Source of the DNA: Dactylonectria macrodidyma | Lineage: Eukaryota; Ascomycota; Sordariomycetes; Hypocreales; Nectriaceae | Length of the DNA: 64,000 bases | Direction: 5' to 3' | Assembly: GCA_020744425.1 (NCBI GenBank) | Contig: JAGMUV010000022.1 | Location: forward strand, 1,054,001-1,118,000 | Part shown: one piece after another, positions 1,108-55,938 of the stretch | Layout: each line of letters opens with the position of its first letter | Position numbering within the stretch: position 1 is the stretch's first letter | Translations under genes and position numbers: made by a program | The notes under the pieces: model-generated | Databases searched by the model: none | What the model was told of the DNA's origin: nothing | Seen by the model: the letters and a program-made list of their open reading frames with translations, nothing else

Positions 1108-4100
1108 TTAACGATCGCTGCCCGAGACGTCACTTTCGCCTCGGGTCTTCTCCAAGCTCTCATAACAGTCCTGTAGTAGGTCCCTTGATAGCTGTCGACT
1201 AGGGTCGTCCTCGGCTAATATCTTTGCTTCGATTGCAACCACGCGTTTAAGTATCTCAATAGCATCCTTAATCCGTCGGTCATTGAGGTATGCTCTTGCA
1301 AGTTCGTGCTCTGATACCAGTCGAGAGTGGTCTTTCTCGTCTAGTGTCTCCTTCTGAACTGCCACCACGTGCTCGAATATCTCGATAGCATCCTCGATCC
1401 GTCGGTCATCGAGGTATGCTCTTGCAAGTTCGTGCTCTGATACCAGTCGAGAGTGGTCTTTCTCGTCTAGTATCTCCTTCTGAACTGCCACCACGTGCTC
1501 TAATATCTCGATAGCATCCTCGATCCGTCGGTCGTTGAGGTATGCACTTGCAAGTGCGTGCTCCGATGCCAGTCGAGAGTGGTCTTTCTCGTCTAGTGTC
1601 TCCTTCCGAATTACTACCACGTGCTCTAATATCTCGATAGCATCCTCGATCCGTCGGTCGTCGAGGTATGCACTTGCAAGTGCGTGCTCTGATGCCAGTC
1701 GAACACCATCTGTTTCGGGATGAAGGCCCTGTCTCCACCAGCACACCTCCTCAAAACACTTTATCGCTTCTTTGAATCGTCTGTCTGCTTCAAAGGAGTC
1801 TCCAACCTTTTCAAACAGATGATAAGTTTGATCTGTCTTATTCTTATAATTTCGACTTAGCAGCTGCATCGCATGTGGCAGATACTCCCTTCTCAAGTCA
1901 TGGTGAGCATCGTTTTTTGCAGGGAACCTCGCTGCAAGGTGACATATCACATCGCTCGCCACCTGCCCGTCCGGGTCCTGTTTTCCAAGCCAGCCTCGCG
2001 TTGCCGCGTGTACAAGGCTGTGCATGTCGAATACATCGCCTTCTCTCCTGCGAACCAGAAATGAGTAGCTACAAAGCATGCCGATGGCCCATTCCAGCTC
2101 GTCAGGTTCTGCATCAGGCAATATTGATTTGGGAATTGCTTTAGGCTCGATGTGAGACATGAAAGATAACAGATCAACGGCAAGCTGGTTTGACTTTTGG
2201 ATCTGATCGAAAGATACCATCCATGTTGTTCCTATGGCGTTTCGAGAACCTCTATATCGGGTGTTGTCTCGGAATTCTCTCCCAAGAACTCTCGCAATGT
2301 CGTCCTCGGCGCCTCGTAAGAGGTCTAGATATGTTTGTATTAGCGCCTTGGTTGAGGTATGCGGCGGCCTGCGTGATGGCCAGCGGGAGAAAAGTCAAAT
2401 GTGTAAGCAGTTCGGCGACTGAAACTTCGTCCTGAAACAACTGTTTCTGAATCAGAGAGTTCTTCAAGAGGTCCGCTGCTTCTTCCTCGTTCATTTGCTC
2501 AACATCAATCACGTCGGATTGGGCGAACTCTACGGCGACGAGCCTAGACCGCGTCGTCAACAGGATGATACCATTTTCGCTCTGAGGCAAATACTCTTCC
2601 AACCCTGGCTTGTCAGCAGATCCAAGGATAAGTTCCTGGTCGTCAGCATTGTCCACAATCAAAAGCCATTTGTCAGCTTTATCCGAGCTGAGGTGCTGGC
2701 AAACTAGGTCTTTCACATCTTCGTCCTCGCTGCTCCTGTGCAACCCCAGCTTTTTGGCAATTTCCACAAAAGCACGTTCTGCACTTTCATTACTCAGAAT
2801 CGGCACCCAGAAGATCGAATAGTCTGGCCTTTTCTTCTTGATCTGGTAGGCAAAATGCAAGGCTATTTGAGTCTTGCCAATCCCGCCAAGTCCGACAAGC
2901 GCCGTCTTCTGGCTCTGCTCCTGGCCGAAAAACTTGTCTTCTAGTGCATTTATAATGGTTGCACGACCAGTGAAGCGTATGTTTCTGGGAAATGGGATAT
3001 AGTAACACGGTTCGTGAACTTCGTCTGGCTTATCGTCAGTGATCAATCCCATCCCCATTCATAACGCGTTGTCTTCGAATAAGTTACCTATGATGCTATG
3101 TCTATTCGAACGGAATTGGTCTATGCGCACATTAGTTTAAGAAAAACCCATGGAAAGAAGACTGGGTACCGTTCCTCTGGGTCGAACCTCGGTCTCCATC
3201 GTGGACTGCGTATCGTCCCAGAATGGCTTTCGCCACAGATGCTGCAGTAGCTGCTGCAAAGTCTTGCCAAGCCTTGTTCTTGTGGCTATCTGCATAGTCA
3301 CAGATACCCTTGACAACGATACACGGAACCTCATCGCACGCTCCTGCGCCTTCCATCTCGAACGCGATGAGGTCGTGTCTGGCGGCAATTTGATCTCGAT
3401 CCTCCCCGCTCTTCATGACTGTGTTGCCTGAACCGATTCGACCGATGAAGATCTCAGGGCTGAAAGCTCCACCCTGGACGAGCTCCTCAAAACGCTCTCG
3501 CGCAACCAGATTAGCGGGATCACATCCAGCCTCGATACATGAAGCCTTGGAGGCTGACTCGCAGAAGACGTCAGGGTCACCAGCACACACGCCACACCAC
3601 TTTCGGTGTCTGTGCATATATGTCGGAGGATATAGCTTGTCTTCATTCATTCCAGGGTATTGGTAATTGGCTCGGCGTCGTCCTTTCTTAGCGGCTTCTT
3701 GCAAATGCTTCAGGTGCCTTGAAGCCTCAGCCTGGAGGCGCTCTCTCATGAGCTCTGTTTCGAATACTGCAAGCAGACTTCGGATGTCCCTGTTTGCTCT
3801 TCCAAGACTGTCTTCAACGGTACTCTTTACCGCAAAATGCCCATGATATTGCCTGCCGTAGTCGTACTGGATGATACTTTTGCTCACTACGACATCACCC
3901 AGGAAGGCATCGTAATTAGCGATGCGGGGCACACCACCACAGATGCCGACGAGGATAGCGAGCTTGAGATCGGTATAGCTCGATCGCAAGCTCGCGGTTG
4001 CAGCCGCTGCGCTGTTAGTGCCCATGCTTGGAAGAACAGCTAGAACAATGTGGTGGTCTCCGATGCGCCCAGTGATGTAGATATTTGTGTCGCCATCTGC

Positions 4101-4235
4101 TCGACCGTAAGGGTCACGGTCTTCGTCCCAGAACTGATCGAACAGTAGGTTGACAGCGTCAGCCTCGCGGGGCAAAGCGCATATTATGGCGACTCGAAAG
4201 CTTTTGCGGTCGGCAGGTGGTTTTTGAGAAGCCAT
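1108..4235 (-). pseudogene. PNP-NB-ARC-TPR NLR-like protein, one frameshift
   Basis: Fungal NOD-like receptor architecture. Exon 1 (4235-3170, ATG at 4235) encodes a purine-nucleoside-phosphorylase-like domain with the family's opening (AIICALPREADAV) and VGICGG motif. A probable intron at 3025-3169 (GTACCC..CCAG, branch site CTGAC) joins in frame to NB-ARC; an in-frame TGA just before 3058 rules out reading straight through. NB-ARC shows Walker A GLGGIGKT, Walker B LLIVDN and the LPLAITQAAAYL region. Near the TTT at 2334-2336 the frame slips by one base: the expected downstream sequence (..YLDLLRG..) is in the adjacent frame, and the ORF that follows carries the winged-helix-like part and TPR repeats. 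In this family the NB-ARC acts as a switch, the TPR as sensor and the PNP-like domain as effector. It is either a recently inactivated gene or a sequencing slip. Confidence 0.8.
1208..1710 (-). repeat. Four 42-residue TPR units with near-identical DNA
   Basis: The TPR sensor end of the NLR gene has four consecutive 126-bp units. Each encodes a kinesin-light-chain-type TPR with the core RIEDAIEILEHVV and linker DEKDHSRL. The units differ at only a few positions, mostly LAS/LVS, DD/ND and IRKET/VQKEI. The last unit is the most diverged. Such high internal conservation is characteristic of fungal NLR repeat domains that exchange units by recombination. Confidence 0.8.
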
Positions 4236-4410
4236 GACATGGATTGTGATTGTAAGAGGATGAAGAGGTGCGAAGTGGGCACGATTGCGGGGTTTGTGCT
4301 GTTGCCTTGTACCGTCACGTGGGGAGCTGAAGTTGCGTCAGGGTTGTCTTCAATCGCCACATCACTGGCTACAAGCAAGTTATTCCGCAGTATCTAGGTA
4401 CATTACTGTC

Positions 4411-4663
4411 ATGATGGCAGCGTTGGTTCATCGCCAGCACGACAGTAGACAGAATCGGATCGGTCGGAAAGCATCTATCGACCAGGGGACCGTTCGAGAT
4501 ATCAACTACGGCCTGCCCCACCCGCCGGCCCGTGCCGAAGTCGTACGCATCATCCTATGTCCTCGCAACGAGGATCTAGTCCATCGTAGAGATCTTATCG
4601 ACAGGCTAGATAAGCTTTTGCCATCGACTCCAGGATCTCTTATCGCCGAATATGCGTTGAACG
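4411..4663 (+). pseudogene. N-terminal exon remnant of an NB-ARC NLR
   Basis: A 134-codon frame whose last part, from ILCPRNEDLVHRRDLIDRLD to AEYALNG, resembles the stretch just before the P-loop in fungal NB-ARC/TPR proteins (V-P-x-R-x-x-x-F-V-x-R...). It ends at a good splice donor (GTGAGT at 4664). No P-loop exon follows; the next sequence is the inverted repeat. The ATG at 4411 is a guess. Read as a truncated 5' exon; resemblance is weak. Confidence 0.35.
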
Positions 4664-4870
4664 GTGAGTATTCAGAACTTGCTAGCTAATTAGGCCTGTG
4701 CGCATTATTGTCGGGTTGATGCAGACTTCGGTCAGGGTGGGGGATATCGGGATAAGGGCGGGAGATAAGCGGCCAGAATGTGGTCCTCAGCGAGCTGTTG
4801 ATGCCTGAGTCTTTACGCATACTTGTACTGTTAGTACTAGAACAGGGCAGGGGTCGCCTTGGCGCTAGCG

Positions 4871-4962
4871 GTACACTGTGCATGCGCCACGCTTAGCCAT
4901 TTTTGGCTATTTTCGATAAATTTACAATGATTGATCACTGACGCTGAACTCGTACCGCACTG
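4871..4962 (-). repeat. Inverted repeat copy 2
   Basis: Reverse-complement partner of 536-627. Read on the minus strand, the two copies also share a reading frame with similar residues (C-G-x-x-x-A-S-V ... H-x-x-C), so the repeat may derive from a short coding piece. It lies in a gene-free stretch, 4690-5418. Confidence 0.55.
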
Positions 4963-5418
4963 TACAGTAGCGGCCGCGAAGATTGTCCACCAATTGAATG
5001 TTAAATCCACCCGGACCACATTGGGGATCATGTGGCAATGTACAGTGTGAACACCTCTTGACATGGAGTAGTCCTGCAAGGTGACACTAACATTGCCTAT
5101 CCATTTTTGGCTCCAGCAGATATGGCAGAGACGTAAGGCACGCTACTCCGCACTTAAAAACACCCAATCACCCCCTGAACTTTACGTGTCGCAACCCTGC
5201 AGGCTGTGTTGATTCAGAATGGGAAATCTATATCTTTTCCCCATCAGATTGGACTGCCAGTAAGAACAGAATATATCCCTCCCGCTGATGCCTCTAGTAA
5301 CATACAATATGATTATTTATTTGACACATCTTCCTCTGCCCTGGTGTGTAGTTAGTGTCTACTCTGAAGTTAACCGCTATGCCCAAGTAGCAACTATCGA
5401 CAATAAGGTCCATCAGCC

Positions 5419-6788
5419 ATGTCTCATCAAGCCACACTACAAACCGTTATCAATCAGCTCAAAGCTCACGATGCATTGGTACTCAAAGAGGCGTTTCCCG
5501 AAGATCTTAGTGTCAACAAATGCTATCAGTCGCGCATCGACCCAGTTACGTATCTCTCCAAAACTTTCATGCATCCAGTTACGCTAATGTCGGCTATGTT
5601 CGATTCTGGCTATGTTATTAGTGGATCTCGGGCATTAGAATTCTTCATCCCAGGGTCCATCACACCGCAGTCAGACTGGGACTTCTACGTCCCCGGTTAC
5701 AAAGAATCCGTCGCCGATACGATTAATGTCCTAGCTTTATGTGGCGTGACTTGGGACTTAGAGGGTGATGCAATCGTTACCGCTTTGACGCAAAGTGGAA
5801 CTGTGGAAGCTGCCGTTAGAACCATGGAGACCTTGGCATCATGGATGTCGCAGTTGGATGCAGCCACAGCAACCACATTGATGGGGGAGAGCTTGTATCA
5901 AGTCTTATCTGCCTTTCTAAGATCCACACGGAGCTCTTGCGATAAAAGCTACACTATCAGCATTGACCCAGACAACCAAGTGGTGGTCATGACGAACCAA
6001 TTCCTACCAGACGAGAGGCCCGTAGACTCAGCGACCTATAAAGACAGTGCAGGGCAATCCTTCAATCTACTGCGTGGTTCAATAATGACAAGCAAAAGCA
6101 CACAGCCTGTGCAATTAATTGTTAGCTGCCATTATTCGGGCGCACGAAGTTGCTTGAGCTTCATCAAAGACTTCTACGCAAGCCATGTGCAATGCTTTAT
6201 CAGTGGATAGTGTGCAAGCCATTTGTACTACGCTGACGCTAGTGCTGGGAAGGCATACCTGTGGCAACAGCCTGAGATGAGCGCAGCTGTTAAGACAGCC
6301 ATCGTGAAATACCAGAAAAGAGGTTTTGAGTTCTTCCCTGCTCCTAACACCAGTCCTACCCCTCGGCGGCTAAAGGATAGTCGCGGAATATTTTTGGACT
6401 ATGGTAATATATACTAGCAATTCATACGAAGCAGCAACCAGAGCTTGCTTCAAAATGGCTCACTAAGCGCCGCTAGAACATCGACAGTGTACAGTGGACC
6501 GAGTTTCAAGGCGAGATATTGTCAATGTATAGCCCAATGGAGGTTTGCTGGAAAAGAAGTAAATCGTATGCTGTTGCAGCATATGGCCTGCCACTTGACC
6601 GTCTTCGGCGTCTTGTAGACACCATCTCTCTGAACACGCCGAGTACTGATGCTATGAGGACTAAATCATTCTTCAGTACAGTGAGAAAAACGGTGATGGG
6701 CGACGAATGGTACTCTAGAGAGGCCGCAAGATCAGGAGCAGTCTATTTTACTTTTCGGGACGCTACTCCTTGGTCTTGGTTGATGTAG
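5419..6788 (+). pseudogene. Fungus-specific protein with a G-S-R ... SDWDFYVPG motif, decayed
   Basis: A 263-codon ORF (ATG at 5419) contains GSRALEFFIPGS followed by SDWDFYVPG, an arrangement of a common uncharacterised family of filamentous fungi that looks nucleotidyltransferase-like (inference). The frame is stopped by TAG at 6208-6210 but continues in the same frame to 6417 with family-like sequence; TGG is the likely ancestral codon. A frameshift between about 6418 and 6490 moves the tail (TEFQGEIL ... to 6788) to another frame. One nonsense change plus one frameshift supports a pseudogene. G-to-A at a TGG codon fits RIP but does not prove it. Confidence 0.65.
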
Positions 6789-6930
6789 GAGGAACAACTA
6801 CTGAGTCAATGCAAGGATGAGCGGAAGTAGGTTGCTATGCGTATATCCATTACGAGATCTCTAGCACTCACAGCCTTTCTTACTTGCTGTAGAATACTAT
6901 ATACCCAATGACGAAACAGAGAACAACAGA

Positions 6931-7350
6931 CTAGGTAGCAGTCTCGCTCCACTCATTCCCGACCCGTATCCTTGCCATCTCTTCACTCTTGATGTCCTTT
7001 GCATAGTTTCTCCCCGCGATTCCCTCAATCTTCTCCGTAACGGCCTCTGACAAGACACTATCGGTACCGGCAGCGGCGTCCTGCAGAGCCATCAAACTCG
7101 GCACGTCGTCCACCTCCTCAATTTCTAGCTCCACGAGCTTGCAACGCATGCTCTCCACGGGAAATAGCATCTCTAGATCATCCACAAATCCCGTGATCTG
7201 TTCTACCAGCCTGTCGAAGTTCTTGCCGTCGTACAGCGCCCACGCCGCCTTCTTCAGCAGGCCCGTTCGCTTCTGTCTCTGCCGAGCGGAGTGTGCCGGA
7301 GAACAATCAATCGAGCCAGCGGAGAGCCTGGACTCAAGCTGATTCAGCAA
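6931..7350 (-). pseudogene. HET-s-like HeLo protein, 5'-truncated, with amyloid motif
   Basis: The 139-residue frame matches the C-terminal half of the HeLo (prion-inhibition and propagation) domain of HET-s/HET-S: KKAAWALYDGK, FVDDLEMLFP, LVELEIEEVDD. Residues 113-133 (GRNYAKDI ... RVGNE) have the pattern of the HET-s-related amyloid motif, which in known proteins carries a prion-like signal between an NLR and the HeLo effector. The stop falls six residues after the motif, so there is one copy where HET-s has two. The frame opens with TTG, not ATG, and about the first 130 residues of HeLo, including the membrane-active N-terminus, are not found upstream. A repeat-like segment lies directly at the truncation. 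Probably no longer able to kill; whether it is expressed is unknown. Confidence 0.8.
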
Positions 7351-7365
7351 CTGGTTTCCGCCCCT

Positions 7366-7682
7366 CGCACTAGCGGGTTACTACCGAACCTAAACTCTCT
7401 TGCGCCGGGCGCGGCACATTTTAGTGGCCTGAGAAAACATCATGAGCAAAGGTTGGAGTGTCTCTTCTACGAGAGTCTCGGATGAACAGGGTTGAGCTGA
7501 AATGAAATGACGCAACCCCCCTCGTAGAGAAATGATCAAGTGTGTGTGAATCAACTAGCGTGCACAGCCGAACATCCGGGCTCTCCTTCGCCGGGCGCAA
7601 GCTATTTTAGCGGCTGGGGAAATAGCAGGGATTTGCAATCTGCCACACGCCTAAGTCTGGCATTAGCCCGCTAGCGCCTTGC
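7366..7682. mobile_element. Possible MITE-like insertion at the HeLo truncation
   Basis: Ends carry an imperfect inverted repeat around CTAGCGGG (7369 onward, and reverse complement near 7668-7676). Inside is a direct repeat of about 48 bp, CGCCGGGCGC..ATTTTAGYGGC, at 7396-7443 and 7579-7627. No transposase and no clean target-site duplication were seen. Its position exactly where the HeLo gene loses its 5' half makes an insertion plausible. Confidence 0.3.
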
Positions 7683-7683
7683 G

Positions 7684-8191
7684 TACGAAGGTTACGGCGG
7701 TTAGTTTGCCTCACGAGGCTTGTGATAACTGCAAGGGCCCTGGGAAGTCTGGAAAAATCGGCAACACTGGAATATTCCCTTCAGGTGCGATCGAGTTACT
7801 TCGTGAAACCTCTGTAATTACTGAAAGCCCGTGGGGCAAATTAACAAAACTTTTACTGTATCCTTCGTAGTAGACTACCAGAATTGTGGGCTTATTATCT
7901 TAGGCTACATAGACCTGTGCAGTTCCGCAAACAGGCGAGATTTCCAGGATATACTCTCGTAGAATCAACATTTAGGAAATCTTAAAGAGTTTCAGCTTAT
8001 CCGACTAACTTGTACATAGATAGATGTTAACAGCGCCAAGACGCATGAACTTGGATAAGAAGGGTAACAATGATGAAGGAGTATAAAGGTGAATGAAAGT
8101 GTTGATCTAAGATTATTCTAAGCTACCTATAGAAAGCAAAGTTTTTACAGTATTGGGGGTAGGGGACAACAGCAAGCAGCCTCAAGAATTA
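7684..8191. other. Intergenic, nothing recognised
   Basis: AT-rich spacer between the HeLo remnant and the 3' end of the esterase gene. Short ORFs have no recognisable content, and the missing 5' exon of the HeLo gene is not here on either strand. Confidence 0.5.
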
Positions 8192-10297
8192 CTAGTACGG
8201 GACCTTTGCTGAGACCGCCCGCCAGAAACCACATCGTGCCCCGCGGCCCCCTTCCCAGGTCCAACCATTAGCCAGGCGAAAGGTATTTACGATACCCACG
8301 CCAGACCGAACGTAAAAGCTCAACTCATCGGTAACAGGGATGAGAGTGACCTCGCCGCCAGTAGTATTCAGGTCCATATGCTGGGGATTCTTCAGCGAGT
8401 ATTCCGGCCAGCGAATCTTGTTCCCTCGCTTTGGAACGGTTGCATTTTTGTAGCCCGCGGTAGCATCTGCCACAGAAATGATGGGGCTGTTGTGTATGAC
8501 GAAGTTCCCCCAAATCTTCTGGAAGGCATGGCGAAAGTCGGCGTTTGGGACCGCTGCCCCAACGGCGAAGTAGGCGGATAGGTCGGCTCCGTGGTGGGAT
8601 GGCGTAACCGAGTACTGGTATTTCCAGACTTTGCGAGAGTCAGTGCTGTAAGCCTCGGCGAACCACTGGGCCGGACAGTCGAATGTTGACTCGCCAGCGA
8701 TGTTGAACACGGCTTGCTGGATGCCAGTGGCGTAGCTGGATTGGTTCAGAGCGGTAGGGCCTCGATCGCCGAGAGTATCGAAGCGAGGGTCGTCGTCGCC
8801 GGGCTGTGCCTGGTCGAGCTGGTAAGTTTCGTGGAGGCGGGCAGTGTCGGAGTTGCTGAATAGTGGGAAGGTATTGGTGACGAAATCATTATACTGGGCT
8901 TGTGTATTGACAACCGGGTTTGTTAAGGGGACGCCCTCGTTTGCGTTGTTCTGTGAAAGAAGATGTGAGAAACCGCAAGACTTTCCTCACGGGAAACGCT
9001 GGGCCAGAGCCACTCACCCCCACAAGAAGATGTTTACCGCTAACGCGACCCAAGTGCAGCTGTCGAGATGGACGGCCTTGAATAAAGTCACCGTCAATTA
9101 CGGGCAGCCAGGAAAAGCTTCCAAAGTAGCCTCGGGTAGTTGACACTGTCCCGCTAGCACTTTGCAGTACGGCGCTATCAGCAGCAACCAGACAATCGAA
9201 AGCGTTTCCATGTTTCTTGCGATCAGGAGATCCCTTGCCGCATCCAGCCAGCTTAACAAACGCGGCGTAGTGACCAGTGGGAACAGTCTCGTCATAGCTG
9301 TAGATAGGTGGTGCGTATGGACTAGCAGCAATGACCTAGGTGAAGACACAGAAATCAGCTGCGATAATACAAATGGAAAAGGCGTTGGGCGTGGAGAAGC
9401 ACCGACATTAGTAAAGAGCTTGGAGTCCTTGCCACCGTATGCGAGGGCATGGTGCATGACGGAGCCCGCACCAGACGACTCTCCTGCTATCGTGACACGA
9501 TCTGGGTCGCCGCCGAACTTGGAGATATGCTTCTGCACCCACGCAAGAGCAAACTGTTGATCCAAGAGTCCGGCATTGAGCTTGCCCTTCTTCTTGACGG
9601 CTTTGGAGGAAAGGAACCCGAAGGCGCCCAAACGGTACTGTATCTCGACAACGATAAAGCCATTGTTGTTAGTATTTATCCACACGCTTGGGTCGTACGC
9701 AGCTCCGAATAGCTGGTAACCTCCCCCGTCTACACGCGCCAGCAGTCAGTACCCAGAATGGTGGAAGAGGCGACATTATGCGAGGAAATACATACGAATC
9801 CAGACCAGAACAGGCAGGTCGGAAGCATCAGGTGCAGCGTAGACGTTCAGATACAAGCAGTCTTCATCGCCCGGACCGGAGTTGAAGCCGTAGACCTCGG
9901 GCGTTCCAAAGGCTCCGGATTGAGGACATATCGGTGGCTGGTCGACAGCTGCGGTGACTGGAGGAGGGCCGTATTTGGGCGTTTTGACGGCTTGAGGAGC
10001 CTGCCACCTTAGTTTCCCAATGGGAGGCGCTGCATACCGGATCCTGGATTCAAGTCAGCACGATTGGCCCGTGATGGATATCGGTTTGCGGATGGTGTGA
10101 CAATCCACGCACCCCTTCCAGATGTTCAGATCGTAGGTATCATTGTAGTAACCTTCGTAGGTCGCATAGCCGAGTTTGACGACGGGGCCACCTGCAGCGT
10201 CGGATGAATCGCGCATGTGTACATCGTGTCTGGCTGTTGTTCCTGAAGCCCATACAACCACTGTCGCTCCTAGGAGCCTGAGAAAGGTGCCCTGCAT
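8192..10297 (-). pseudogene. Secreted type-B carboxylesterase, five exons, frame slip at the oxyanion hole
   Basis: Carboxylesterase/lipase of the alpha/beta-hydrolase fold. Proposed exons: 10297-10113, 10043-9796, 9730-9407, 9335-9018, 8950-8192. An N-terminal hydrophobic segment suggests secretion. Visible landmarks are YAAPPIGKLRW, PVLVWI, the nucleophile elbow GESSGAGS in exon 3 and a C-terminal SHHGADLSAYF region that likely holds the catalytic His. Four introns have plausible borders (GTGCGT, GTATGT, weak GTCGGT, GTGAGT) and phases agree except at intron 2/exon 3. There the G-run that should encode the HGGGY oxyanion-hole motif has one extra G. Without it, all phases close. So this is either a one-base pseudogene or a homopolymer error in an otherwise intact gene. 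Confidence 0.8.
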
Positions 10298-21778: not shown

Positions 21779-22030
21779 AGTCTCTCGCGTCTCTTGAGTT
21801 TTATAGAGTAATGCACCTGTAGACTCTCGACGGACCGCCCTGGATGGGCCTCACAGAACCGCTGGTGAATTTCGGGCCACGCTAGCATCTCTCTGCCCTC
21901 CTTTAACTCGATGAGAAGATCATCTTCTTGTGAGCTGTATTTGGCTCTCGGAGCTGAAGCACACTTGGCCCGGCTCCGCGTCCGAGTCGAGGGCAAATCA
22001 ACTCGATTCCGAACGGTGCTGCTGGCATGC
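21779..22030 (-). pseudogene. Myb/SANT-like C-terminal fragment
   Basis: The minus frame reads RAKYSSQEDDLLIELKEGR ... LAWPEIHQRF ... RSVESLQVHYSIKLKRRE, the pattern of a single Myb-like DNA-binding repeat found at the C-terminus of many fungal proteins. It overlaps, in another frame, the end of the NACHT fragment, suggesting two unrelated pieces were joined. Only the C-terminal part is present. Confidence 0.5.
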
Positions 22031-22904
22031 CCATGCTCAAGCCAGCAGGTATCTTTCCGATGGCGTCTAGTACATCCCAAAAGTCTGTGGTTTGAAGCTC
22101 CTGGCAGACCAAGGCCACCCAGAGAAACGTGTCATTAGCACCAGAGACCAAGTGCTGTTCAACGGTATCCCTTGTTTCCTTGTCGTATTTCTTATGGCAT
22201 GCTAATCGATCCACCTTATATGCAATGTACGTGTCAACAGCCATGGAGATTGAGTCTTTGTTCAACTCGAGGTATAGCCTGACTTTCTGCTTTATGTTGC
22301 CCATTTTCTCCTTAATGTCCCACCAGTTGCGGCTAGACACGATCCACTTGACGCGAGAAGCCTTGGCAATTAAGTCGAGAAGCTGATGTCGATTCGTTTT
22401 GCATTCGTCGAGGGCATTAACAATCAGGATCGCACTATCCAAGCTCGGGTCATTAAGCATGGCCGCAAGGATCTTGGATAAGGCTTCCCAGGCATTTCCG
22501 TCCTTAAAAAGCTGTTTACCCGCATGGTCGTGCTTCTTCCGAACATGCGAGGTGAGCGACGGCTGTTGGTCGACGAGAAGGTAGATCAGGCCGCGCAGCA
22601 CGGCCGTCGCATTACTCAGTCGTGCCTCGGTGGCCTGGCAGAAGAAATAGGACAGGCGATTGTCGGGTTCCTTCTCCAGCCACTGTCTTTTCTCTTCAGC
22701 TTGTGGGTCGCGTTCTCTTTCTAGTTCCTGCTGTCGCATCCTCTCCTCTTGTTGGCGGCGGCGTTCTTCTTCCCGCTGCCGAATCGTCTCCGCTCGTTGG
22801 CAGCAGCGCTCCTCTTCCTGCAGCCGTATTGTCATATGCTGCTGCTGGGTAGGCAGTTATGTCTGTGGTGGAGTGGGTAGGGAAAAAGGATCATGTGAGT
22901 TAGA
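21903..22904 (-). pseudogene. NACHT fragment without P-loop, coiled-coil N-terminus
   Basis: The frame begins with a charged coiled coil (QREEERRRQQEERMRQQELE) and passes directly into the middle of a fungal NACHT domain: LSYFFCQATEARLSNATAVL, LIYLLVDQQPSL, Walker-B-like ILIVNALDEC, then VKWIVSSRNW. The Walker A strand that should precede LSYFFCQ is missing. An upstream ATG near 22904 leads in the same frame through one TAA (probably a former CAA) to the coiled coil. After the NACHT part the frame loses family character near a candidate Myb fragment. Either a chimera or a deletion product; unlikely to bind ATP normally. Confidence 0.65.
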
Positions 22905-25088: not shown

Positions 25089-28000
25089 TAGGACGACCTT
25101 CGCAACAGACCACCGACAAGACCGCCGATAAGAGACCATTACGCATCTTCCAAGCTAACGTCGGCAAGGACTCGGCATCGCATGACTGTGCGCTGGCCTT
25201 GCTGATAGAAGCGGATACGGCGTAATAATGATCCAAGAGCCTTAGACCAGTACGCAGAATAACCGTTGCACGACGAAGAATCATACTGCATACCGAACCT
25301 TCTCTCCTATATCAAACTGGGAGGGAATCAGCATACGCCCGAGGGTCATGACCTATGTGTCTCTCCGCAGCAAGCTGAACGCCGACCAGCTGAGGCCTAG
25401 GCCGAAGCCCTCTCGAGATATCCTTCTAATACGAGCTCGTGGCATCTCTTTCCTTAATATCTATCGTCAACCGGGTACGCTAGAGACCCTCGATTTCCTT
25501 GACAGTTGGCTGGTCCCTGGCCGGACCCTTATCGCCGGAGACTTCAACGCCTCACACACGCTTTGGCAAGCAGGACCCCATCGGAACCAAGGGGCCCGGA
25601 TCGCAGCTTGGATTGAAGGCAACGATCTTACTATTCTTAACCAACCGAACCAACCGACTAATAAATACAATAATACCCTCGATCTCGCGATCTCAAACAT
25701 CCCCACTGCACAAGCTAGAGTGGAAGACCACCTCGCGACTAGCTCAGACCATCACACACTCAGTACCTCTCTTCCCGTCCAACTAACGCCTCCGCAAGCC
25801 AGCCGGATCCGGGTCCGGATCGAGGACCCCGACGACCTAGCCCGACTCGCCGAGTCCGTCGCACGAGGACAGGACTTCCTGCTAACAGCCGCGACAACAG
25901 CCGAGGAACTTGACTTTGCAGCAGCCCAGCTGCTTAAGCTCTTACAGGATGCAATTAGGGTCATCGGCCGAAGCCCTCAGCAGAACGGGCGCTCTGCCCC
26001 GTGGTGGAACAAAGACTGCGCCAAGTCCCACGCGCAATACTGAGCAGCTAAGAGACAGGACCCCGAAGAGGACCTAGGGCCTATAACACTCGCTAGGAAG
26101 GACTTCCGTAAGATCGTCAGGAAAGCAAAAGTCGACTTCTGGAGGAATATTATTAATAACGCTATAACGAACGCCGATATCTTCCGTATCGCCGGATGGG
26201 TCCGTACCCAAAGCGCCTTCCAGCCCCCGCCCCTCCAGGTAGGAGACGAGGTCTTTGAAACGCAAGAGGATAAAGCAAACGCCCTCCGCAAAGCTGCGCT
26301 CAAGAGACGAGACGCAGGGGATGACATTGAGGACCCGTGGGCCCCTCAGGTGCCTGACGCCCCTGACCTTCCCTTTTCTACGCTGATCTCAGCTGAGGAA
26401 GCGGAAGACGTAACGACAAGACAGGAAACACATCTCCCGGCGCAGACAACGTGACTACAGCGATTATCCGGGCCTGCTGGCCAGTTATCGGCGAATACAT
26501 CCGGTGGCTTTACGAGAGATGTCTCTGCTTAGGGCACCACCCGAAGGCGTTTAAAGGCGCGGAGGTTATTATGGTCCCGAAGCCCGGAAAGAGGAATCTG
26601 TCTTCCCCGCGCGCTTGGAGACCGATTTCCTTACTTTCCTGCCTCGGCAAGGGATTGGAAAGATTGATCGCAAGACGTCTCGCCTTTGTGGCGATCGGCC
26701 GGAAGGTCCTGCACAAGAACCAAGCCGGGGCTCTGACGAAGAGGTCTGCTGTAGACCTCATCGCTGCCCTGGTCCACGACATCGAAGCTGCCCTCGCCCG
26801 AGGGCTCGTCGCGACCCTTGTGACGATGGACGTTCAAGGCGCCTTCGATACAGTCCTCCGGAACCGACTTCTGCTGCGACTCCGTCAGCAGGGTTGGCCG
26901 GACCTGCTGGTCCGCTGGGTGGCCTCTTTTATGACTGACCGCACAGCCCGAGTCCACTTCCAAGATGCGGTCACGCCTATCTCTGCTCTAGAATGCGGAC
27001 TCCCTCAGGGCTCGCCTGTCTCGCCAATCCTTTTCCTGCTCTACACAGAGCCGGTCTATAAGATCAGAATCAAACCAAACCCTTGCCCTGGGTTCAATCC
27101 GGTTCCTACCATACGCTACGGCTATGCAGACGACATTACCTCTCTCCACATTGGGGATACGCTCCGTGAGACGATAGACGAAGCGGAGATCAATATCGAA
27201 GAGATAGACCATTGGGGGCTCTGCAATGAGGTCAGTTTCGACTCAGCTAAGACGGAGATAATGCACTTCTCGCGGAGACGAGAAGACTGCAGCCCGACGA
27301 TCGTACATAAAGGTCAGACTAAGGTGCTGGAGGAAGCCCTCCGCTGGCTGGGCGTCTGGCTGGATAAGAAGCTATCGTTTAAGATACATGTGGAAAAATG
27401 GGCGATCAAGGCCCGAGCTATCGCTAACTTCCTGCGAGGCCTCGCCAATACAGCCCGCGGCCCTCCTCTAATAAGGTCCGTCTCGCCATCAAGGCCTGTG
27501 TCCTTCCTGTTCTATTCTACGGGGCTGAAGCCTGGTACCCGGGAAAGACAGCGCCGTCCTTACGAGCAGGAGGACCCCAGGTCTCGACAAAGATCGATCA
27601 CCTTCTTGACCGCCTTAAATCCGTCTTACATATCGGCATCCGCAGCATCCTTCCAACCTGGAAGACGACCCCATTAGCTGCCCTCTATCGCGAAAGCGGC
27701 ATTCCGCAAGTTGAGCAGCTACTAGATGCTACACGCCTGCGCTACGCAGCCCGCCTTCAAGCCCTAGATCCGAGGCACCCCCTCACAGCAAGGGCTATCG
27801 TCCCAGCCCACAGGCCGGGCCGGAAGCCGATCTACAAGACCCGTCTGCAACGGACTGCGCTACTTCTCCCGCCCTCGCCTCGGCCAGACCTCCTACAACG
27901 TCAATACAGATGCACCGAATTACACATCCAGCCGAAGGCTAGGGCTGTTCCAGCCTTCCTTGCCTGAATCGAGACCTTATTTACGGAAGACCTCATCGTT

Positions 28001-29962: not shown

Positions 29963-31839
29963 AGTCAGGCCACCCACTTACGGATCAGGGGCTTAGCTGA
30001 CCGCCCCACTTACAACCGCGTCAACCACAACGCGTCTCTAGCCACACGCGTTTCTTCCTTCAACAACACTCAATTGGCCAATTCAACTTCATAACCTTAT
30101 TTATTATGCCTAAATACACCCAAGAAGACCTTCAAGGAGCCATTCAAGATGTCAGAAATGGCATATCAATGCGAAAAGCAGCCAATCAGCGCGGAGTTCC
30201 TTATTCAACCTTACGCAACAGGCTTAATGGCGTACCTAGCCGCAACGAAGCCCACGAATGGCGCCAGGCGCTTTCCAGATATCAGGAAGACCAGCTCACT
30301 GATTGGCTTATCTTACAAGATAAGCTCGGCATGGCGTTGACTCATGGCCAGATCCGGAAGTTGGCGATTTCCTTGTTGGGCCAAAATGGCACCAACCAAC
30401 GACTCGGAAAACCCTGGATGAAGGGCTTCCTGCGCCGCAACCCGCGAATAAAAACGCTCAAAGCAAAGGGAATCGACCGGAAAAGGATAAATGGAGCAAA
30501 TCCAGCTGCTATTCGCGGGTTCTTTGGCCTAATGGACCAACCAGAGCTCGCATCGATCCCTCCACGTAACCGTTGGAATTTTGATGAAGTTGGACTCTTC
30601 CAAGGGCCCGGAACCAACGGGCTTGTTGTTGGCCAATCAGAGCTTCGATCAACGATTAAGAAACAGCCACAAAACCTTAACTGGATTACTATTCTTGAGG
30701 CTATTTCCGCAACAGGAAAGTGCCTTGACCCATTGGTCGTCTTCAAAGGCAAACACGTCCAACACCAATGGTTTCCTGAGGAATTGGACTTTCTGACCAA
30801 TTGGAGGTTTACAACATCTAAAAAGGGATGGACCAATGACGAAATTGGGCTTGCGTGGCTACAGGAAGTCTTTCTTCCGGGCTCAAAGCCTGCCCGGGCC
30901 AATGAAAAGCGGCTTCTTATCCTAGATGGGCATGGATCACACATAACGCCTGATTTTATGCGTATTTGTATGACCAATAGGGTCCATTTACTCTATTTGC
31001 CGCCTCATACAAGCCACGTTCTTCAGCCTCTTGATATATCAGTCTTTGGGCCACTCAAAGCTGCATATCGGACCGCCTTGACACTAGCCAATCCAGTCAC
31101 CGATGTTGGCCCAACTAGGAAGGAAGACTTTCTTTCTTGCTATTTTCAGGCTAGGAAGAAAGCTATTACTATTCGAAATGCCCGTTCGGGTTGGAAAGGA
31201 GCCGGGTTGTGGCCAATCAACATCTCAAAGCCAATGGGTAGTAAATTTGTTATTGAAGACCCTAATGAGTCAATTACGGTCCAATCAGGAGCCCCTCTTT
31301 CTCCAAAAACGAATCAAAGGTCCGAAATCAGCCCTTTTACAACCCCTACTACTTCGAGAGACGTTGCCTTATTGGTTCATTCTCATAAGAAGGAAATCCT
31401 AGCTAGCCCAACCACAAGGCAGCTCTTTCGGACTATTTATCGGGGAATTGATAAGCTCCACGTACAAATGGCCCAATTAGAAGATCGAATTCTAGTCCAA
31501 GACCAAAATTCAGGCCAATCAAAGGCTAAGAAGAGAGGAAGGGTTTATAAAGACCCAAATGAGGAATTTTCTAACATCCAGAATGTAAAGAGAGCAAGAA
31601 GGCGAATAGAAACGCCTGAAATTGAAGATTCAGAATAGCTTGTTTTTCCTTTGTTTTTATTGGTTAGTTTTTTGATATTTAGAAAATTTATTAGCTATTT
31701 TATTAAAAATCAGTTAAAATGGACCAATTAGGCCTCTTGGTTGTTCTTTTATATATAAGTGAAGTTGAATAGGGATTTTGGTTGTTGTATAAGTGGGGCG
31801 GTCAGCTAAGCCCCTGATCCGTAAGTGGGTGGCCTGACT
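29963..31839 (+). mobile_element. Intact pogo/Fot1-like DNA transposon
   Basis: 1877 bp with terminal inverted repeats of 50 bp that are identical in both arms (starting AGTCAGGCCACCCACTTACG). Both ends are flanked by TA (29961-29962 and 31840-31841), the target duplication of the Tc1/mariner-pogo superfamily. One intact transposase gene lies inside. Perfect repeats and an open ORF suggest recent insertion and possible activity. The right end lies 110 bp upstream of the start of the HET gene at 31950. Confidence 0.95.
30106..31638 (+). CDS. Pogo/Fot1-like transposase
   Basis: Intact 510 residues. The N-terminus is a psq-type helix-turn-helix (MRKAANQRGVPYSTLRNRL) followed by a CENP-B-like HTH region (GKPWMKGFLRRNP). 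The DDE_1 catalytic core shows Asp160 (NFDEVG), Asp274 (LILDGHGSH) and Asp310 (LQPLDISVFGPLK), a DD35D triad. The tail is basic with coiled-coil character. It would cut and paste the element between TA dinucleotides. No lesion seen. Confidence 0.95.
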   Translation: MPKYTQEDLQGAIQDVRNGISMRKAANQRGVPYSTLRNRLNGVPSRNEAHEWRQALSRYQEDQLTDWLILQDKLGMALTHGQIRKLAISLLGQNGTNQRLGKPWMKGFLRRNPRIKTLKAKGIDRKRINGANPAAIRGFFGLMDQPELASIPPRNRWNFDEVGLFQGPGTNGLVVGQSELRSTIKKQPQNLNWITILEAISATGKCLDPLVVFKGKHVQHQWFPEELDFLTNWRFTTSKKGWTNDEIGLAWLQEVFLPGSKPARANEKRLLILDGHGSHITPDFMRICMTNRVHLLYLPPHTSHVLQPLDISVFGPLKAAYRTALTLANPVTDVGPTRKEDFLSCYFQARKKAITIRNARSGWKGAGLWPINISKPMGSKFVIEDPNESITVQSGAPLSPKTNQRSEISPFTTPTTSRDVALLVHSHKKEILASPTTRQLFRTIYRGIDKLHVQMAQLEDRILVQDQNSGQSKAKKRGRVYKDPNEEFSNIQNVKRARRRIETPEIEDSE

Positions 31840-31949: not shown

Positions 31950-33961
31950 ATGAACCCGACGACGCCGTCTACCAACCTTCAACCACATTCCTGTTGCTTC
32001 TGCAACAGAATAATCCTTGTTCGTCATTGTGACGGCAATTATGTGGAAGCGAACCTCGACTACGATCAGGTACTGCAGGGAGCTCGTTCGGGCTGCGCAC
32101 TTCTCCAGGGACGCCTGGATCGACTGCATTCCTCCCCCTGTTACTGGGAGTGTTCGGCTCCTAAGCTACAATGTTACACTATGAGAGATGATGAGGATCT
32201 GATATTCCTTGAGTTCTACTGGGAGGGCATTCAGACAGTGGATTCCGAAGATCAATCGGACAGCCTCCAAATATTTGCGCCAGAAGGTATTTTTAATTAT
32301 TTCAGTCACGTTCCGCAGGGATAGACAGTGTTAACAATGGATGTCAAATAGGAACTTTGGCTCATCGTTATCTTAAACATCAACCTCTGAACATGGAACC
32401 CGCGTCGAGAGAGAATGTCGCCTGGATGAAGAGACATCTTGATAACTGTCGCCGTCATCATCCATGTCGACGTCTTCGCGAAGTGCACCATTCGCTTGCC
32501 ATGCCTAGCCGACTGATTAACGTAGGTTCATCCAGCGATCCCCTTGTGCACATATCAGCAACGCGCTTACCGATGATGGAATGCTATGCCATAGCTAGTT
32601 ATGCATGGGGATCCGGTGTTATTCATGCGATCAAAACAACCACGTCGAATCTGCAGCAAAGGATGGTTGAGGGCATCCAGCTTTCGGAGATGCCGAAAAC
32701 TATCCAGGATTTGGTTCAAGTGACGCGACTCCTTGGCCTTGAATACCTTTGGGTTGATTGCCTATGCGTTGTTCAGGATGACGATGATGAGATAACGCAA
32801 GAAATGGGGAGAATGGCAAACTACTACCAGCGAACCGAGATTCTCCTCTCTGCTGCCACTGCTGAGCACAGTGACGAGGGGTTTCTCAAAGTTCGTCATG
32901 CTGATCAAGTGTATGGTGCTATCTTTGAGATTCCGTACCGATTGGATCTCAATGGCGAAGATGAGCAGGGTGCAGTGTTATTATGCGAGAAGCCACTCTA
33001 CAATAACTCGAAGGAAGAACCCCTTCACAAGCGCATATGGACGCATCAGGAGCATATACTTGCCTCGCGGGTTCTAAGTTTTGGCTCAAAGCAGGTCAGG
33101 TGGGAATGCAGGCGCGGCATCGCTGTTGACGGTGGCTCTTGCTGGTCGCCAGTGGATGATCCTGCTGTCGCCGAAGCATGCATTTCAAGCGGCTCCTTGA
33201 AACCGGCCGAATACGCTCGAGGCTATAAGCTACAGGAGATTCTGGACTCTTGGACAGAGACAGTTGAGGCATATTCTTCCCGCGATTACACAAACAAATC
33301 CGACAGACTACCTGCTTTTGCTGCGATGACATCGCTGCTCGCCTCTGCAACCGGATGGCTGGTATCAGATTGTTACGCAGGCATTTGGCAGGGTGATGCT
33401 CGTAGGCAACTACTCTGGTCCAAAACTGAAACCCAAGATCTGGGCCAATATGACCAGCCATCATGGTCTTGGGCCTCACTACCAGGCTCGGTGGAATATT
33501 CTACCATTAGTAGGCTAGACTGGAGCGGTGACTCTCTTAAAATAGTGGCGTTTAAACCCCAACTTCATGGAGGAATCCTGCTTGAAATTAGGGGCTTTAT
33601 CCGCCAAGCGTTCTGGAACGGCCTCTATATTCAGCAGCTTTCTAATGAGACATCGTCTCCAGATGCTCAAGGCATATTCCTAATGGAGCCAGAGCTTCGT
33701 TGGGACGTTCTTTTACCTCCCCAACCAGTATGGCTCCTTGAGATGGTTTACGCATACAGGGTCCCAGAAAGTCTTGGACTCGTTCTCGTACGAAGCACTC
33801 GAAATTTAGAGCATTTTGAACGGAGAGGGTATTTCGAACTGAACTACTCAGAGACTGGCAATTCAAGTCTTTCCGAAGCAGGAGAGAAAGGACGCCTGAA
33901 GTTGATTGCGGAACCTAATTGGATTCAACGAGGAAGATATCAGAGTGTTTTTATCGAATAG
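31950..33961 (+). CDS. HET-domain protein, intact
   Basis: Two exons, 31950-32286 and 32352-33961, join in phase (GTATTT..AAATAG) to 648 residues. The N-terminus has a Cys-rich opening (CCFCNRII) and a GC(A)LLQ segment common in these proteins. The HET domain spans about residues 185-330: YAIASYAWGSG, LEYLWVDCLCVVQDDDDE, YYQRTEILLSAAT, then RIWTHQEHILASRVL. HET proteins trigger heterokaryon incompatibility and regulated cell death. The promoter is interrupted by the pogo element at 29963-31839, only 110 bp from the ATG, so expression may be altered (inference). Confidence 0.9.
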
Positions 33962-47134: not shown

Positions 47135-48453
47135 CGACGCTTTCTATAAGCTTCATCCTCATCCTCGTCGCCATCATGATCCCGCTCGCTGCCCTCGGCG
47201 CTCTGAGCAGGACGGTATTTGGCATTTTTAAGCAAGACCTCAATAGGAAAGCCTAGGATACGGAGAGGCGGCTTCGCGGGTGAGAGAGGAGCACTCGTTA
47301 ATAAAGACTACCTAGTGGGGTTTATATTTTAAGACAGTACTCCATAATACCCTTCAGATCCTGTCAACCCACCATTAGCCGCTCAGTCATAATGGGGTCA
47401 TGGGAAGACTTTTCTAAATCACGATCGGCGTTTTCCTCATTTGATTGAATGATTTGTCCAGCCGATCGCACGTCGTCCGGCCCCGTTTCGCTTTCTTCGT
47501 TGACCTTGCGCTAATGATCCGTGAGCTAGCGCAAATTGTTTGAGATTCGCATAGAGATCGCCACCAGGGATTATGACGGGCGAAAATGGGCCCCCCCCAC
47601 TAACCTTGCCATTCGCCACCACCAGGACGTGTCGGCCCTACTGGACCTAGCCAGATCATGATCGCCACGTATCCAATCGGTCTAGACTTCATGTGGCTGA
47701 CAACTCACAATTTCCCTGAAACTACTGTAGTAGTATCTGGGCTAGCTAACGCACTGATGAACTAGGACGAGATCGGCAAGCGAAACGGAGGCACCCGATA
47801 TACCCTACCATGAGATGTAGGAACATAGCGAGGTTTCATTCTAAGCATTTGATGCATGTAATATCCTAGTTATGTCAAAAGCTTATGTCCTAAGACTTAT
47901 ATCGGTTATTAGCGCATCGTTCGTCCTGGGTTGGTGCAGGGTTACTGCATTATGGTAGTAGGTCAGTATTCGGGCAAGACTAAGGAGTATGGAGGACGGA
48001 GTACTGGAGTTCAGAATGGACAACCATCCTCAGTTGTGGTTGCAGGGTGTGGAGCAGGCTAGGTATAACGTTAAGCCTATTAAGTGAGCTGCTGTGAGCT
48101 GTGAGCAACCATTGATTGCCTATATTACATACAAAGTGAGCGGGGTATCCTACGCTAAATCGCTAGCCCAAGAGCTGCAGTAGTTGAAAGTCAATTGTTC
48201 TAACTCGGGGACAGCCACAAATCAGAAGAGCCCACAATGAACTCGGATTGCACCCATTAGAGTGTGTGGTCTGTCATTGTGAGACATGCCTGCGAGTCCA
48301 TACCTCTTATCGTAACGCTATAGCATCCCTTCCTTGGCCGGGCATGGACCCTCCGTGTCGGGGGCGGACGCCGTTTAGTATAACTTTGCACCCCCATCCC
48401 TGCCCCAGTTGGTTTCTGCATCTTCCGTCCCTTCCAAGCCGCCGGATTCCAAA
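47135..48453. other. Intergenic, nothing recognised
   Basis: No supported gene. The last few hundred bases should hold the promoter of the HET gene at 48454. Confidence 0.4.
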
Positions 48454-49540
48454 ATGGCTATCCCATACAAGCGTCTCAACCCCCGAAGCCGCGAGATCCG
48501 CCTGCTCGAGATCCAGCCGTCGCACAACCTCGACGATCCCATCAAATGCCGCCTTATCACTGTCCGCCACTCCAAGGAACTGGAGTACATCGCCCTCTCG
48601 TCCCTCTACGGCGACCCGGCTGAGACAGAAACCATCTTCGCTAGCAGCCGCCCGGTCACCATCACGGCTCATCTCGCATTGGCCCTGCGATACATGCGTG
48701 CCGTCTTCTATCCCGGTATCCTACAGCGCTGCCAGCGCATGCCGGCCAGTCGTCTGCAAAGCGTCCCACGTTGGCTGAAGCATTTATTCGCATCGAATAG
48801 CTCGCACTTGTCGGATGGCGAAGTCAGCCGGCCAGGCGTTCTGCGTGTCTGGCTCGACATTCTCTGCGTTAATCAGAACGATGAGTGGGAGAAGTCGAAA
48901 CAGCTGAGCGACATAAAGTACATTTACGATTACGCTGATCTCGTCGTCGGCTGGCTAGGCGAGAAGGCCGAGCATACTGACATCACGATAACAACCATGG
49001 AGGAGATCGAAGACGCCATGCCGCCATACTGGGGTGAGTCCAGCCACCGAAAGAGCCATCCGGAAGACTACTCGCCCACGCATGTGTGGACAAAGTCAAT
49101 ACAGTACATGTGGGAAGAGGGACCGAATGGTGAGCCGCCGTTTCTGATGCCGCGCTGGCTGGGGTGCGTGGAGTTTATGACGCGCCCGTACTTCCAGCGG
49201 CAGTGGATTGTCGAGGAGATTGCGACAGCTTCGTTTCCGGCTTTCTTAGTGGGTGATACGCTGGTGCCGTGGAGGCAGGTGTTGTCGTTGTATAGATTGA
49301 TGGAGGAGTTCAAGTTCTACCCTTCAGATGTCTTTCCAGCGGTAAGTCGCTTGAAGATTAGCCCATTGAGATGCTACTGTGTACGGAATTCGTTACTGAC
49401 TCGTTTGTGAATAGCATCTGAGGGCTGAAGTCGCTTCTGTGCCACTAGAAATAGCACAGAAACTCTTGGATGAGTACGCGAAAGAGAAACCGAGCCGGGA
49501 TTCAAGCTCATCTGAGAACTTGCCGCGGCCTCCTGGATAG
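48454..49540 (+). CDS. HET-domain protein, intact
   Basis: ATG at 48454 (MAIPYKRLNPRSREIRLLEI) is chosen because Y-x-x-L-x-x-x-x-x-x-I-R-L-L is the usual start of these proteins; an in-frame GTG/ATG region upstream (48409) adds only low-complexity residues. Exon 1 ends at 49341, intron 49342-49414 (GTAAGT..AATAG), exon 2 ends at 49540, giving 337 residues. HET landmarks: YIALSSLYGDP, VWLDILCVNQNDEWEKSKQL, DYADLVVGWLGE, RPYFQRQWIVEEIATA. Compact, with no C-terminal effector extension. Role: incompatibility or cell-death signalling by family. Confidence 0.85.
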
Positions 49541-54900: not shown

Positions 54901-55938
54901 TCTCCAGGGTTCGATAAGATCTGGTAAATATCAGCTGTCGTGCAACGAGAGGGATAACGGGGTGATTGCTCACGTTTAGCCCAAGACAAACACCAGCCCA
55001 CGGAAGCGCTGCTGGCGCAGCCTGGGGGATCTGCAGCACAATGTCGGCCGCTGGCTTGGCCGATAGAATGGTTCCAGCGACATCACCGATTGTCTCTGAA
55101 ATCTTCCACGCCTTCTCCACCTTATTCTTGCCTTTTTCCACCAGCATCTCCATGTGCGTCTGTCGCATGGACTGGTCTTTGAGTTTGGCTGAAATATCGG
55201 CTCTGAGCTCATCCAAAGTATTGGTGGTTACCGAAGCGTTGGTGGCCTTTTTGGCCATGACGTCTTCGAGCTTGTCTAGAATCTCGGCCCTGATTCTCTT
55301 ATGCTCGGCTGAGGAGGTATCGGTACCGTTCTTGTCCTCGAGGTCTTTGAGCATATCATCCACGAGGACCTTCGCCAAGGTATTCCTATAAGCTTCGGCG
55401 AGTTCGCCATGTTCGCTCTCAAGCATATCGTAAGCTTTATCCCAGAGTTCCTGGGAAAGTTTGAGGCCTAGTTCGGTCGCGGATTTTGTAGCTGGCTGAG
55501 AATCTGTGGCTCTGGGGTCGGCAGGCGGACGTGCAAAATCAGTGATGGGTGGGCCTGTGGGTGAAACTTGCACTTGCGCGGTAAGGCCGGATGAAGCTGT
55601 CAAAGACTGTTGAGCGGTGGACGCCGTGGCTGGCCGGCGAGGCTCTTTGGTTTCCTCGTCTGCGTTGGCGGGAACGCCGGACGCTCTCGAAGGAGGAGCA
55701 CGTGGCCCTGAACTATCTCTCACATCTCCCCGCTCACCAGACCGGTTCTCGGTAGCTGGAATTTGTTAGCTGCGATCACTGGGAGCTCCTCTGCCGTCAA
55801 TAAGTCTTGCGTACCTGGCGTTGACGTCGCTGGCTCGGCGGGCGAGACAACCTCATCGTGTTGGAGTCGGGACTCTCCAACGTCCTTTCGGGTATGGCCC
55901 CAGACGAGATCCTTCAGTCGCTCGAATTTCGGACACAT
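51912..55938 (-). CDS. NACHT_N-NACHT-WD40 NOD-like receptor, intact
   Basis: Four exons close in phase: 55938-55815, 55755-54974, 54920-52899 and 52850-51912, giving 1288 residues. Introns are 59, 53 and 48 bp with GTACGC, GTGAGC and GTATGT donors. A Pro/Thr-rich N-terminus precedes the fungal NACHT_N domain (LWDKAYDMLESEHGELAEAY ... GIAYVVSRMYWY ... LYKAILLYQ). NACHT shows Walker A GSAGTGKT (about residues 525-532) and Walker B FIVDALDELDEC (about 628-640), with RWLVSSRPE after it. From about 1052 three near-identical WD40 repeats follow and a degenerate blade-like tail. In this family (het-d/e-like NWD proteins) WD repeats sense a ligand, NACHT switches, and the N-terminus signals cell death. 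Three or four blades are fewer than a full propeller, as in shortened alleles. Confidence 0.92.
52190..52640 (-). repeat. Three near-identical 138-bp WD40 units
   Basis: Each 46-residue unit reads VAFSPDGKMLASASRDKTVR then LWAI..G..TGELKQTL. The second and third differ at only a handful of bases. Variation is concentrated in DPGA/NLGT/DPGT and NDRVNS/DDWVRA, positions on the propeller surface. The array would be prone to copy-number change. Confidence 0.85.

What the first reader, a model, noticed from the sequence alone, without database searches (positions are those of the whole stretch)
6931..7350. HET-s-like HeLo remnant that kept a single amyloid motif
The frame aligns with the second half of HeLo and ends with one HET-s-related amyloid motif (residues 113-133, NYAKDI ... 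RVGN) six residues before the stop. HET-s proteins carry two such motifs. The membrane-active N-terminus is lost. A truncated protein that retains the prion-forming segment could act as an inhibitor or decoy rather than a killer, which is inference. No NLR in the window shows a matching N-terminal motif.
Basis: partly seen in the sequence, partly recalled or inferred. Interest (0 to 1): 0.75.

Follow-up and report, generated by a model that had tools for sequence, protein, structure and literature searches.

The report
Broken het-S gene scrap
A fungal genome carries a small broken-off piece of a self-recognition cell-death gene, joined to scraps of unrelated DNA; it still spells the end of the killer domain and one amyloid motif, but nothing found here suggests a working inhibitor, so it is most likely ordinary genomic debris.

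Summary
On the minus strand, frame 7377..6931 (148 codons) matches the last third of HeLo (E 3e-17) and the first of two HET-s repeats (E 2e-12). DNA shared with the three nearest longer paralogs is exactly 351 bp (6938-7288, 91-93%) and stops inside the coding sequence at both ends. One end is fused to a piece of a repeated methyltransferase-type gene, which supplies the stop codon; the other runs through 26 bp of filler into DNA near an esterase. No in-frame ATG precedes codon 70, no 5' HeLo piece lies in the window, and no annotated protein was found. The 'single motif' is where the DNA broke. The decoy/inhibitor reading is unsupported, and its sign is doubtful: the lone NLR-type motif tested in Podospora activates HET-S. 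A weak shortage of nonsynonymous private changes (P about 0.03) leaves a small chance of an expressed peptide. NLRs with HET-s-type N-terminal motifs exist elsewhere in the genome, two of them divergently paired with broken paralogs. Low interest by itself.

The parts
6938..7288 (-). 351-bp fragment of a het-S-like gene: end of HeLo plus first HET-s motif (R1); both ends broken inside the coding sequence
   Evidence: blastn block 90.9-93.2% to L001/L003/L004 with identical limits in all three; Pfam HeLo + HET-s_218-289
6931..7377 (-). open frame (148 codons, no ATG before codon 70) containing the fragment; codons 1-30 and the stop come from other DNA
6955..7011 (-). R1 amyloid motif, about residues 123-141 of the frame
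   Evidence: PF11558 positions 1-32; aligned to the first repeat of 2mus
6934..7170 (-). stretch from the first in-frame Met to the stop (79 aa), with only the very end of HeLo
6822..6937 (+). piece of a repeated methyltransferase-type gene (six other copies; five match from 6822, L084 from 6837), joined directly to the fragment
   Evidence: Methyltransf_23 downstream in copy L080, read with X at stops
5082..6836 (.). dispersed repeat of unknown function; full or partial copies at 10 other places at 88-98% (pieces on one contig near each other counted once), one more at 75%
   Evidence: no significant Pfam match for its ORF 5407-6210
7289..7314 (.). 26-bp stretch of no known origin at the right junction; AGCGGAG occurs at 7285-7291 and again at 7318-7324
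7315..9683 (-). esterase gene region and its downstream DNA, duplicated on contig C23 (7315-7425 79%; 7895-9683, the limit of the DNA held, 84%; 7426-7894 not shared)
   Evidence: COesterase in frame 8192-8986 (E 5e-6, 26.1 bits, just under the cut-off of 27)

Best explanation
A non-functional gene fragment. A piece of a het-S-like effector gene (the kind that pairs with an NWD2-type NLR) came to lie here by illegitimate joining of broken DNA, next to a methyltransferase-gene piece, a dispersed repeat and the 3' side of a duplicated esterase. It keeps R1 because the break fell just after R1. It most likely makes no protein and does nothing. Shown: the family, the exact limits, the flanks, the lack of an early start codon, and longer copies elsewhere. 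Inferred: the joining mechanism, the lack of expression and the lack of function.
For: Homology to the three nearest longer paralogs starts and stops at the same two window bases. The left end is fused base to base to a methyltransferase-gene repeat that runs on past this point in all six other copies read (five over the whole stretch compared, L084 for about 83 bases more). The right end has 26 bp of unplaced sequence and a repeated 7-mer before DNA shared with C23. No Met before codon 70. No other HeLo match in the window at E<=1. No identical protein among the hits (34 of 34 listed; 7 of 7), although one search lists four other HET-s-type proteins of the same assembly. Its private substitution rate (12 of 351) does not differ from that of the adjacent repeat piece (4 of about 101; Fisher p 0.76). 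The open frame is uninformative: 71% of simulations with 10 random substitutions keep it open. Interrupted or partial relatives are common here: of 13 PF11558 matches over cut-off only those on C6 and C31 lie in one stop-free frame with a HeLo match; the one on C1 has stops in the HeLo stretch but an annotated protein, P0025, so introns are likely.
Against: Private changes are nonsynonymous less often than expected: 4 of 10 in ungapped columns against 7.2 expected, P about 0.03. This may date from time as part of a working gene. dN/dS to paralogs is 0.21-0.24, but pairs of the paralogs themselves give 0.24-0.30, including two copies with premature stops at 0.26. The fragment carries no more family-rare residues than full-length relatives in general (4 of 117; median of 114 relatives 4). 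No expression data were available, and a gene model under 43 or over 259 aa would have escaped.
Confidence: 0.87

Rival explanations
1. An expressed single-motif peptide acts as an amyloid template: like the N-terminal motif of NWD2 it would seed or be seeded by HET-S-type proteins and would activate, not inhibit, an intact HeLo effector.
For: R1 is complete and aligns without gaps to HET-s R1. [quoted passage not shown] Slight deficit of nonsynonymous private changes.
Against: No start codon before codon 70, no annotated protein found; fused to other DNA at both ends. [quoted passage not shown]
Confidence: 0.05
2. An inhibitor or decoy: the truncated protein co-polymerises with het-S-type amyloid and poisons signalling.
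For: It has an amyloid motif and lacks about the first two thirds of HeLo.
Against: Same lack of expression evidence. The published behaviour of a lone motif is activation (PMC4344463, passages). The listings (9 of 9 papers shown; 10 of 43 shown) and the passages read showed no truncated HET-s decoy; the 'decoy' passage of PMC5485727 shown is about plants. This is not a full literature search.
Confidence: 0.03
3. It is the last exon of a longer spliced or fused gene whose start lies upstream, for instance a read-through of the esterase.
For: Same strand as the esterase, about 0.9 kb downstream of its stop; the frame is open for 30 codons upstream of the homology.
Against: No HeLo N-terminal piece in the window. 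The upstream 30 codons have no Pfam match of their own, and most of them lie in DNA shared with the esterase duplicate on C23. Splice sites were not modelled.
Confidence: 0.04

Closest known systems
HET-S/HET-s family (HeLo + HET-s_218-289; Podospora anserina small s protein; 288-aa relatives in Dactylonectria estremocensis and Fusarium)
   Same: 88.9% identical over 117 aa to D. estremocensis P0035 and 91.5% to Fusarium nematophilum P0040; first amyloid repeat complete
   Different: lacks about the first two thirds of HeLo, the second repeat and an early start codon; 111 of the 114 proteins P0035-P0148 carry both repeats by a crude column-coverage rule (one search listed 120 of 300 hits)
NWD2-type NLR with a single N-terminal motif (r0)
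   Same: one copy of the 21-aa motif
   Different: no NACHT or repeat part; the fragment's motif is R1-like: 19 of 21 identical to a paralog R1, 5 to 8 of 21 to the 11 r0-type motifs compared
Podospora het-s/nwd2 decay (nwd2 disrupted by a transposon in het-s strains; PMC3321046, and PMC4344463, passages)
   Same: degeneration of one partner of a het-S/NLR pair in paralogs of this fragment
   Different: in the pairs at C32:186-188 kb and C21:486-488 kb the effector is broken while the matched NLR frame is open (585 codons each; the whole NLR was not examined)

Membership tests
HET-S/HET-s effector (HeLo + two HRAM repeats) | complete HeLo domain | tested here: not met
   only profile positions 134-205 of 205; no other HeLo match in the window
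HET-S/HET-s effector (HeLo + two HRAM repeats) | two 21-aa amyloid repeats | tested here: not met
   PF11558 positions 1-32 of 65 only; the stop comes from the neighbouring repeat
HET-S/HET-s effector (HeLo + two HRAM repeats) | adjacent NLR with r0 motif | tested here: not met
   no NLR match next to the fragment, and no motif seen at the window's NACHT NLRs; paralogs L001 and L004 do have one
HET-S/HET-s effector (HeLo + two HRAM repeats) | common descent of the remaining piece | tested here: met
   90.9-93.2% DNA identity to paralogs, PDB 2wvo E 7e-29
HET-S/HET-s effector (HeLo + two HRAM repeats) | amyloid/prion formation | not testable with these tools
   needs a peptide or in vivo assay
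Transposon-captured gene fragment | terminal repeats or target-site duplication around the piece | tested here: inconclusive
   The repeat finder on 4500-8300 (minimum 14 nt) shows none flanking the fragment; a 7-bp repeat only at the right junction; shorter duplications not tested
Pseudogene fragment | no complete coding unit and homology limits inside the coding sequence | tested here: met
Pseudogene fragment | no selective constraint after truncation | tested here: inconclusive
   4 nonsynonymous of 10 private changes, P about 0.03; rate like that of the neighbouring repeat piece
Pseudogene fragment | no transcript or protein | not testable with these tools
   no RNA data; only absence among database proteins of about 43-259 aa

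The most novel reading that the evidence does not exclude
A het-S fragment too short to be a good target of RIP survives while full-length siblings are mutated, and yields a small single-motif amyloid peptide that can cross-seed with the genome's motif-bearing NLRs or effectors, giving a free-standing trigger or modulator of cell death.
Probability: 0.05. Interest if true: 0.7.

Novelty: new member of a known kind. Interest (0 to 1): 0.17.

Why it matters
By itself little: it is a gene scrap. It is a caution that an HRAM profile match plus a clean frame is not a protein, and that 'one motif instead of two' can be a break point. In context, the close het-S copies looked at here are interrupted or partial while some neighbouring motif-bearing NLR frames stay open. 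That makes the fate of orphaned amyloid-signalling receptors testable.

Tried and rejected
Selection tests: dN/dS of the fragment against paralogs is 0.21-0.24, rejected as proof of constraint because pairs among the paralogs give 0.24-0.30, with 0.26 for the two copies that have premature stops. Open-frame argument rejected: 71% of simulations with 10 substitutions stay open. Rare-residue test: fragment 4 of 117, 68 of 114 relatives have 4 or more, but the 12 closest ones tabulated show 0-5; inconclusive. Mobile capture: the repeat finder shows no terminal repeats flanking the fragment, and the copies of the 5082-6836 repeat do not coincide with any HET-s match. The extra HeLo bits that the genome search gave upstream (profile 72-205 read through stops, 68.4 bits, against 63.4 bits) are not backed by DNA identity and were set aside. 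In one search two paralog rows were shifted by one column in the tree; one search repeats it correctly (the fragment groups with the C21:722 copy, support 0.79, weak). By DNA the fewest differences are to L001 (19, against 29 and 32; L001 has a 5-base gap). Structure prediction was not run: it would not decide expression. One-motif count: 148 proteins, P0001-P0148: 128 with both repeats, 13 R1 only, 7 with neither or R2 only, by a crude 70% column-coverage rule; 10 of the 13 come from the length-limited search, which favours short or truncated models. Paper searches (no hits; little use) led nowhere further.

Full report
What was checked. Pfam gives HeLo at residues 29-98 (profile 134-205 of 205, E 3.3e-17) and HET-s_218-289 at residues 116-147 (profile 1-32 of 65, E 2.3e-12). 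Against the PDB the best hits are the small s protein crystal structures, aligned from chain residue 134 on, and then the HET-s amyloid over its first repeat. So the match is the last third of HeLo and the first of the two amyloid repeats.

Where it lies. The lengths of contigs C1, C21 and C32 equal those of Dactylonectria macrodidyma contigs; that this is a root-associated fungus linked to black-foot disease of grapevine is recalled. The genome has 66 HeLo matches at E<=1 and 28 HET-s_218-289 matches at E<=10, 13 of them over the cut-off.

Exact limits. DNA comparison with the three nearest longer paralogs, L001 (C32:187 kb), L003 (C21:722 kb) and L004 (C21:486 kb), shows one shared block, window 6938-7288, 351 bp, 90.9-93.2% identical, with the same two limits in all three. 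Beyond the limits the paralogs continue like one another and the window does not. The left neighbour, from 6822 to 6937, belongs to a repeated family with six other copies (five match from 6822, L084 from 6837) that run on past 6937, five of them over the whole stretch compared and L084 for about 83 bases. Copy L080 carries a methyltransferase domain there (Methyltransf_23, E 8e-15, stops read as X). The stop codon of the frame lies in this neighbour. Further left, 5082-6836 is another dispersed repeat. The right side has 26 bp of unplaced sequence and then DNA shared with an esterase duplicate on C23 (79% and 84%). The 7-mer AGCGGAG stands on both sides of the 26 bp. This looks like end joining with filler DNA (inference).

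Is it a protein? There is no ATG in frame before residue 70; from there 79 aa remain. Database searches covering protein lengths of about 43-259 aa list other HET-s-type proteins of the same assembly (P0002, P0025, P0030, P0032) but none identical to this frame; a model outside these lengths would have been missed.

Selection and age. Against L001, L003 and L004 the fragment has dN/dS 0.24, 0.23 and 0.21; pairs among the paralogs give 0.24-0.30, so the ratio mostly reflects time as a working gene. Private to the window are 10 changes in ungapped columns, 4 nonsynonymous and 6 synonymous; random placement expects 7.2 nonsynonymous, P(4 or fewer) about 0.03. This weak hint cannot separate selection before from selection after truncation. 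With two more changes in columns where L001 has a gap the private count is 12 of 351, like the adjacent repeat piece (4 of about 101, p 0.76). RIP-type context (C to T before A, or its complement) accounts for 9 of 15 private changes in L003, 9 of 14 in L004, 0 of 3 in L001 and 0 of 10 in the window; of the window's two changes in the gapped columns, one is of RIP type by my own reading of the alignment, so 1 of 12. A 351-bp piece is below the roughly 400 bp that RIP is usually said to need (recalled; a 400-bp cut-off for that reason is used in a passage of PMC4920403), which may explain why its frame looks cleaner than its longer siblings (inference).

Partners. A genome search with the N-terminal 300 residues of one motif-bearing NLR gave 130 matches at E<=1e-6 (131 of 240 candidates scored); 13 of them, the query itself included, start within the first five residues, where the motif lies. 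In the nine of these 13 whose DNA was held, a GN-type N-terminal motif is readable (in two, C20 and C52, the frame also has a stop). Two, C32:186194-187096 and C21:487439-488341, stand divergently beside L001 and L004, the arrangement known from het-S/nwd2. Their motifs share 5 of 21 residues with the window R1; the others compared share 5 to 8. At the two NACHT NLRs of the window (21903-22856; 52887-55082 with its own NACHT_N domain) no HET-s motif was seen.

What it would do if made. [quoted passage not shown] the same paper notes that it was not sufficient in mammalian cells (PMC4344463, passages). R1 alone was not the tested piece in the passages read. A free R1 would be expected to act as a trigger or be inert rather than as an inhibitor (inference). 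HET-s-type proteins normally carry both repeats: a survey that looked for repeat pairs describes 155 such proteins (PMC4518210, passages), and 111 of the 114 proteins P0035-P0148 have both by my crude rule.

Verdict. A fragment of a known gene family, most likely without function.

Noticed in passing
C32:186194-187927 (L001) and C21:486605-488341 (L004): Divergent het-S/NLR pairs in which the effector is broken (5-base gap within the first motif in L001; premature stops in L004) while the matched NLR frame is open over 585 codons; the reverse of the Podospora het-s/nwd2 case. The full NLRs were not examined.
   Followed up: partly
L003 (C21:722396-723190): het-S-like copy with five premature stops in HeLo; 9 of its 15 private changes in the 351-bp block are in RIP context.
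   Followed up: partly
window 1108-4337, minus: NLR-type locus in several frames: phosphorylase (PNP_UDP_1) and NB-ARC parts, followed by a repeat-rich stretch.
   Followed up: no
window 51912-55765, minus: NACHT NLR with a NACHT_N domain and WD40 repeats, split over several frames.
   Followed up: no
window 21903-22856, minus: Partial NACHT NLR, 56% identical over residues 98-297 of the 300-residue motif-NLR query and without its N-terminal third; looks like another broken member.
   Followed up: partly
window 32297-33961 and 48379-49410, plus: Two HET-domain (heterokaryon incompatibility) ORFs: the window holds several self-recognition-type genes.
   Followed up: no
window 26397-27677 and 30001-31638, plus: Reverse transcriptase ORF (RVT_1) and a DDE_1 transposase ORF with a Tc5-type DNA-binding domain.
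   Followed up: no
window 5082-6836: Dispersed repeat with a 267-codon ORF (5407-6210) of unknown function; full or partial copies at 10 other places at 88-98%.
   Followed up: partly
window 7395-7436 and 7581-7622: 42-nt direct repeat (74%) with a GC-rich core, 186 bp apart, in the DNA downstream of the esterase.
   Followed up: no
P0001, P0003, P0017: Thelonectria and Mariannaea gene models also end soon after the first HET-s motif; probably truncated models of decayed copies, but a recurrent one-motif form was not excluded.
   Followed up: partly
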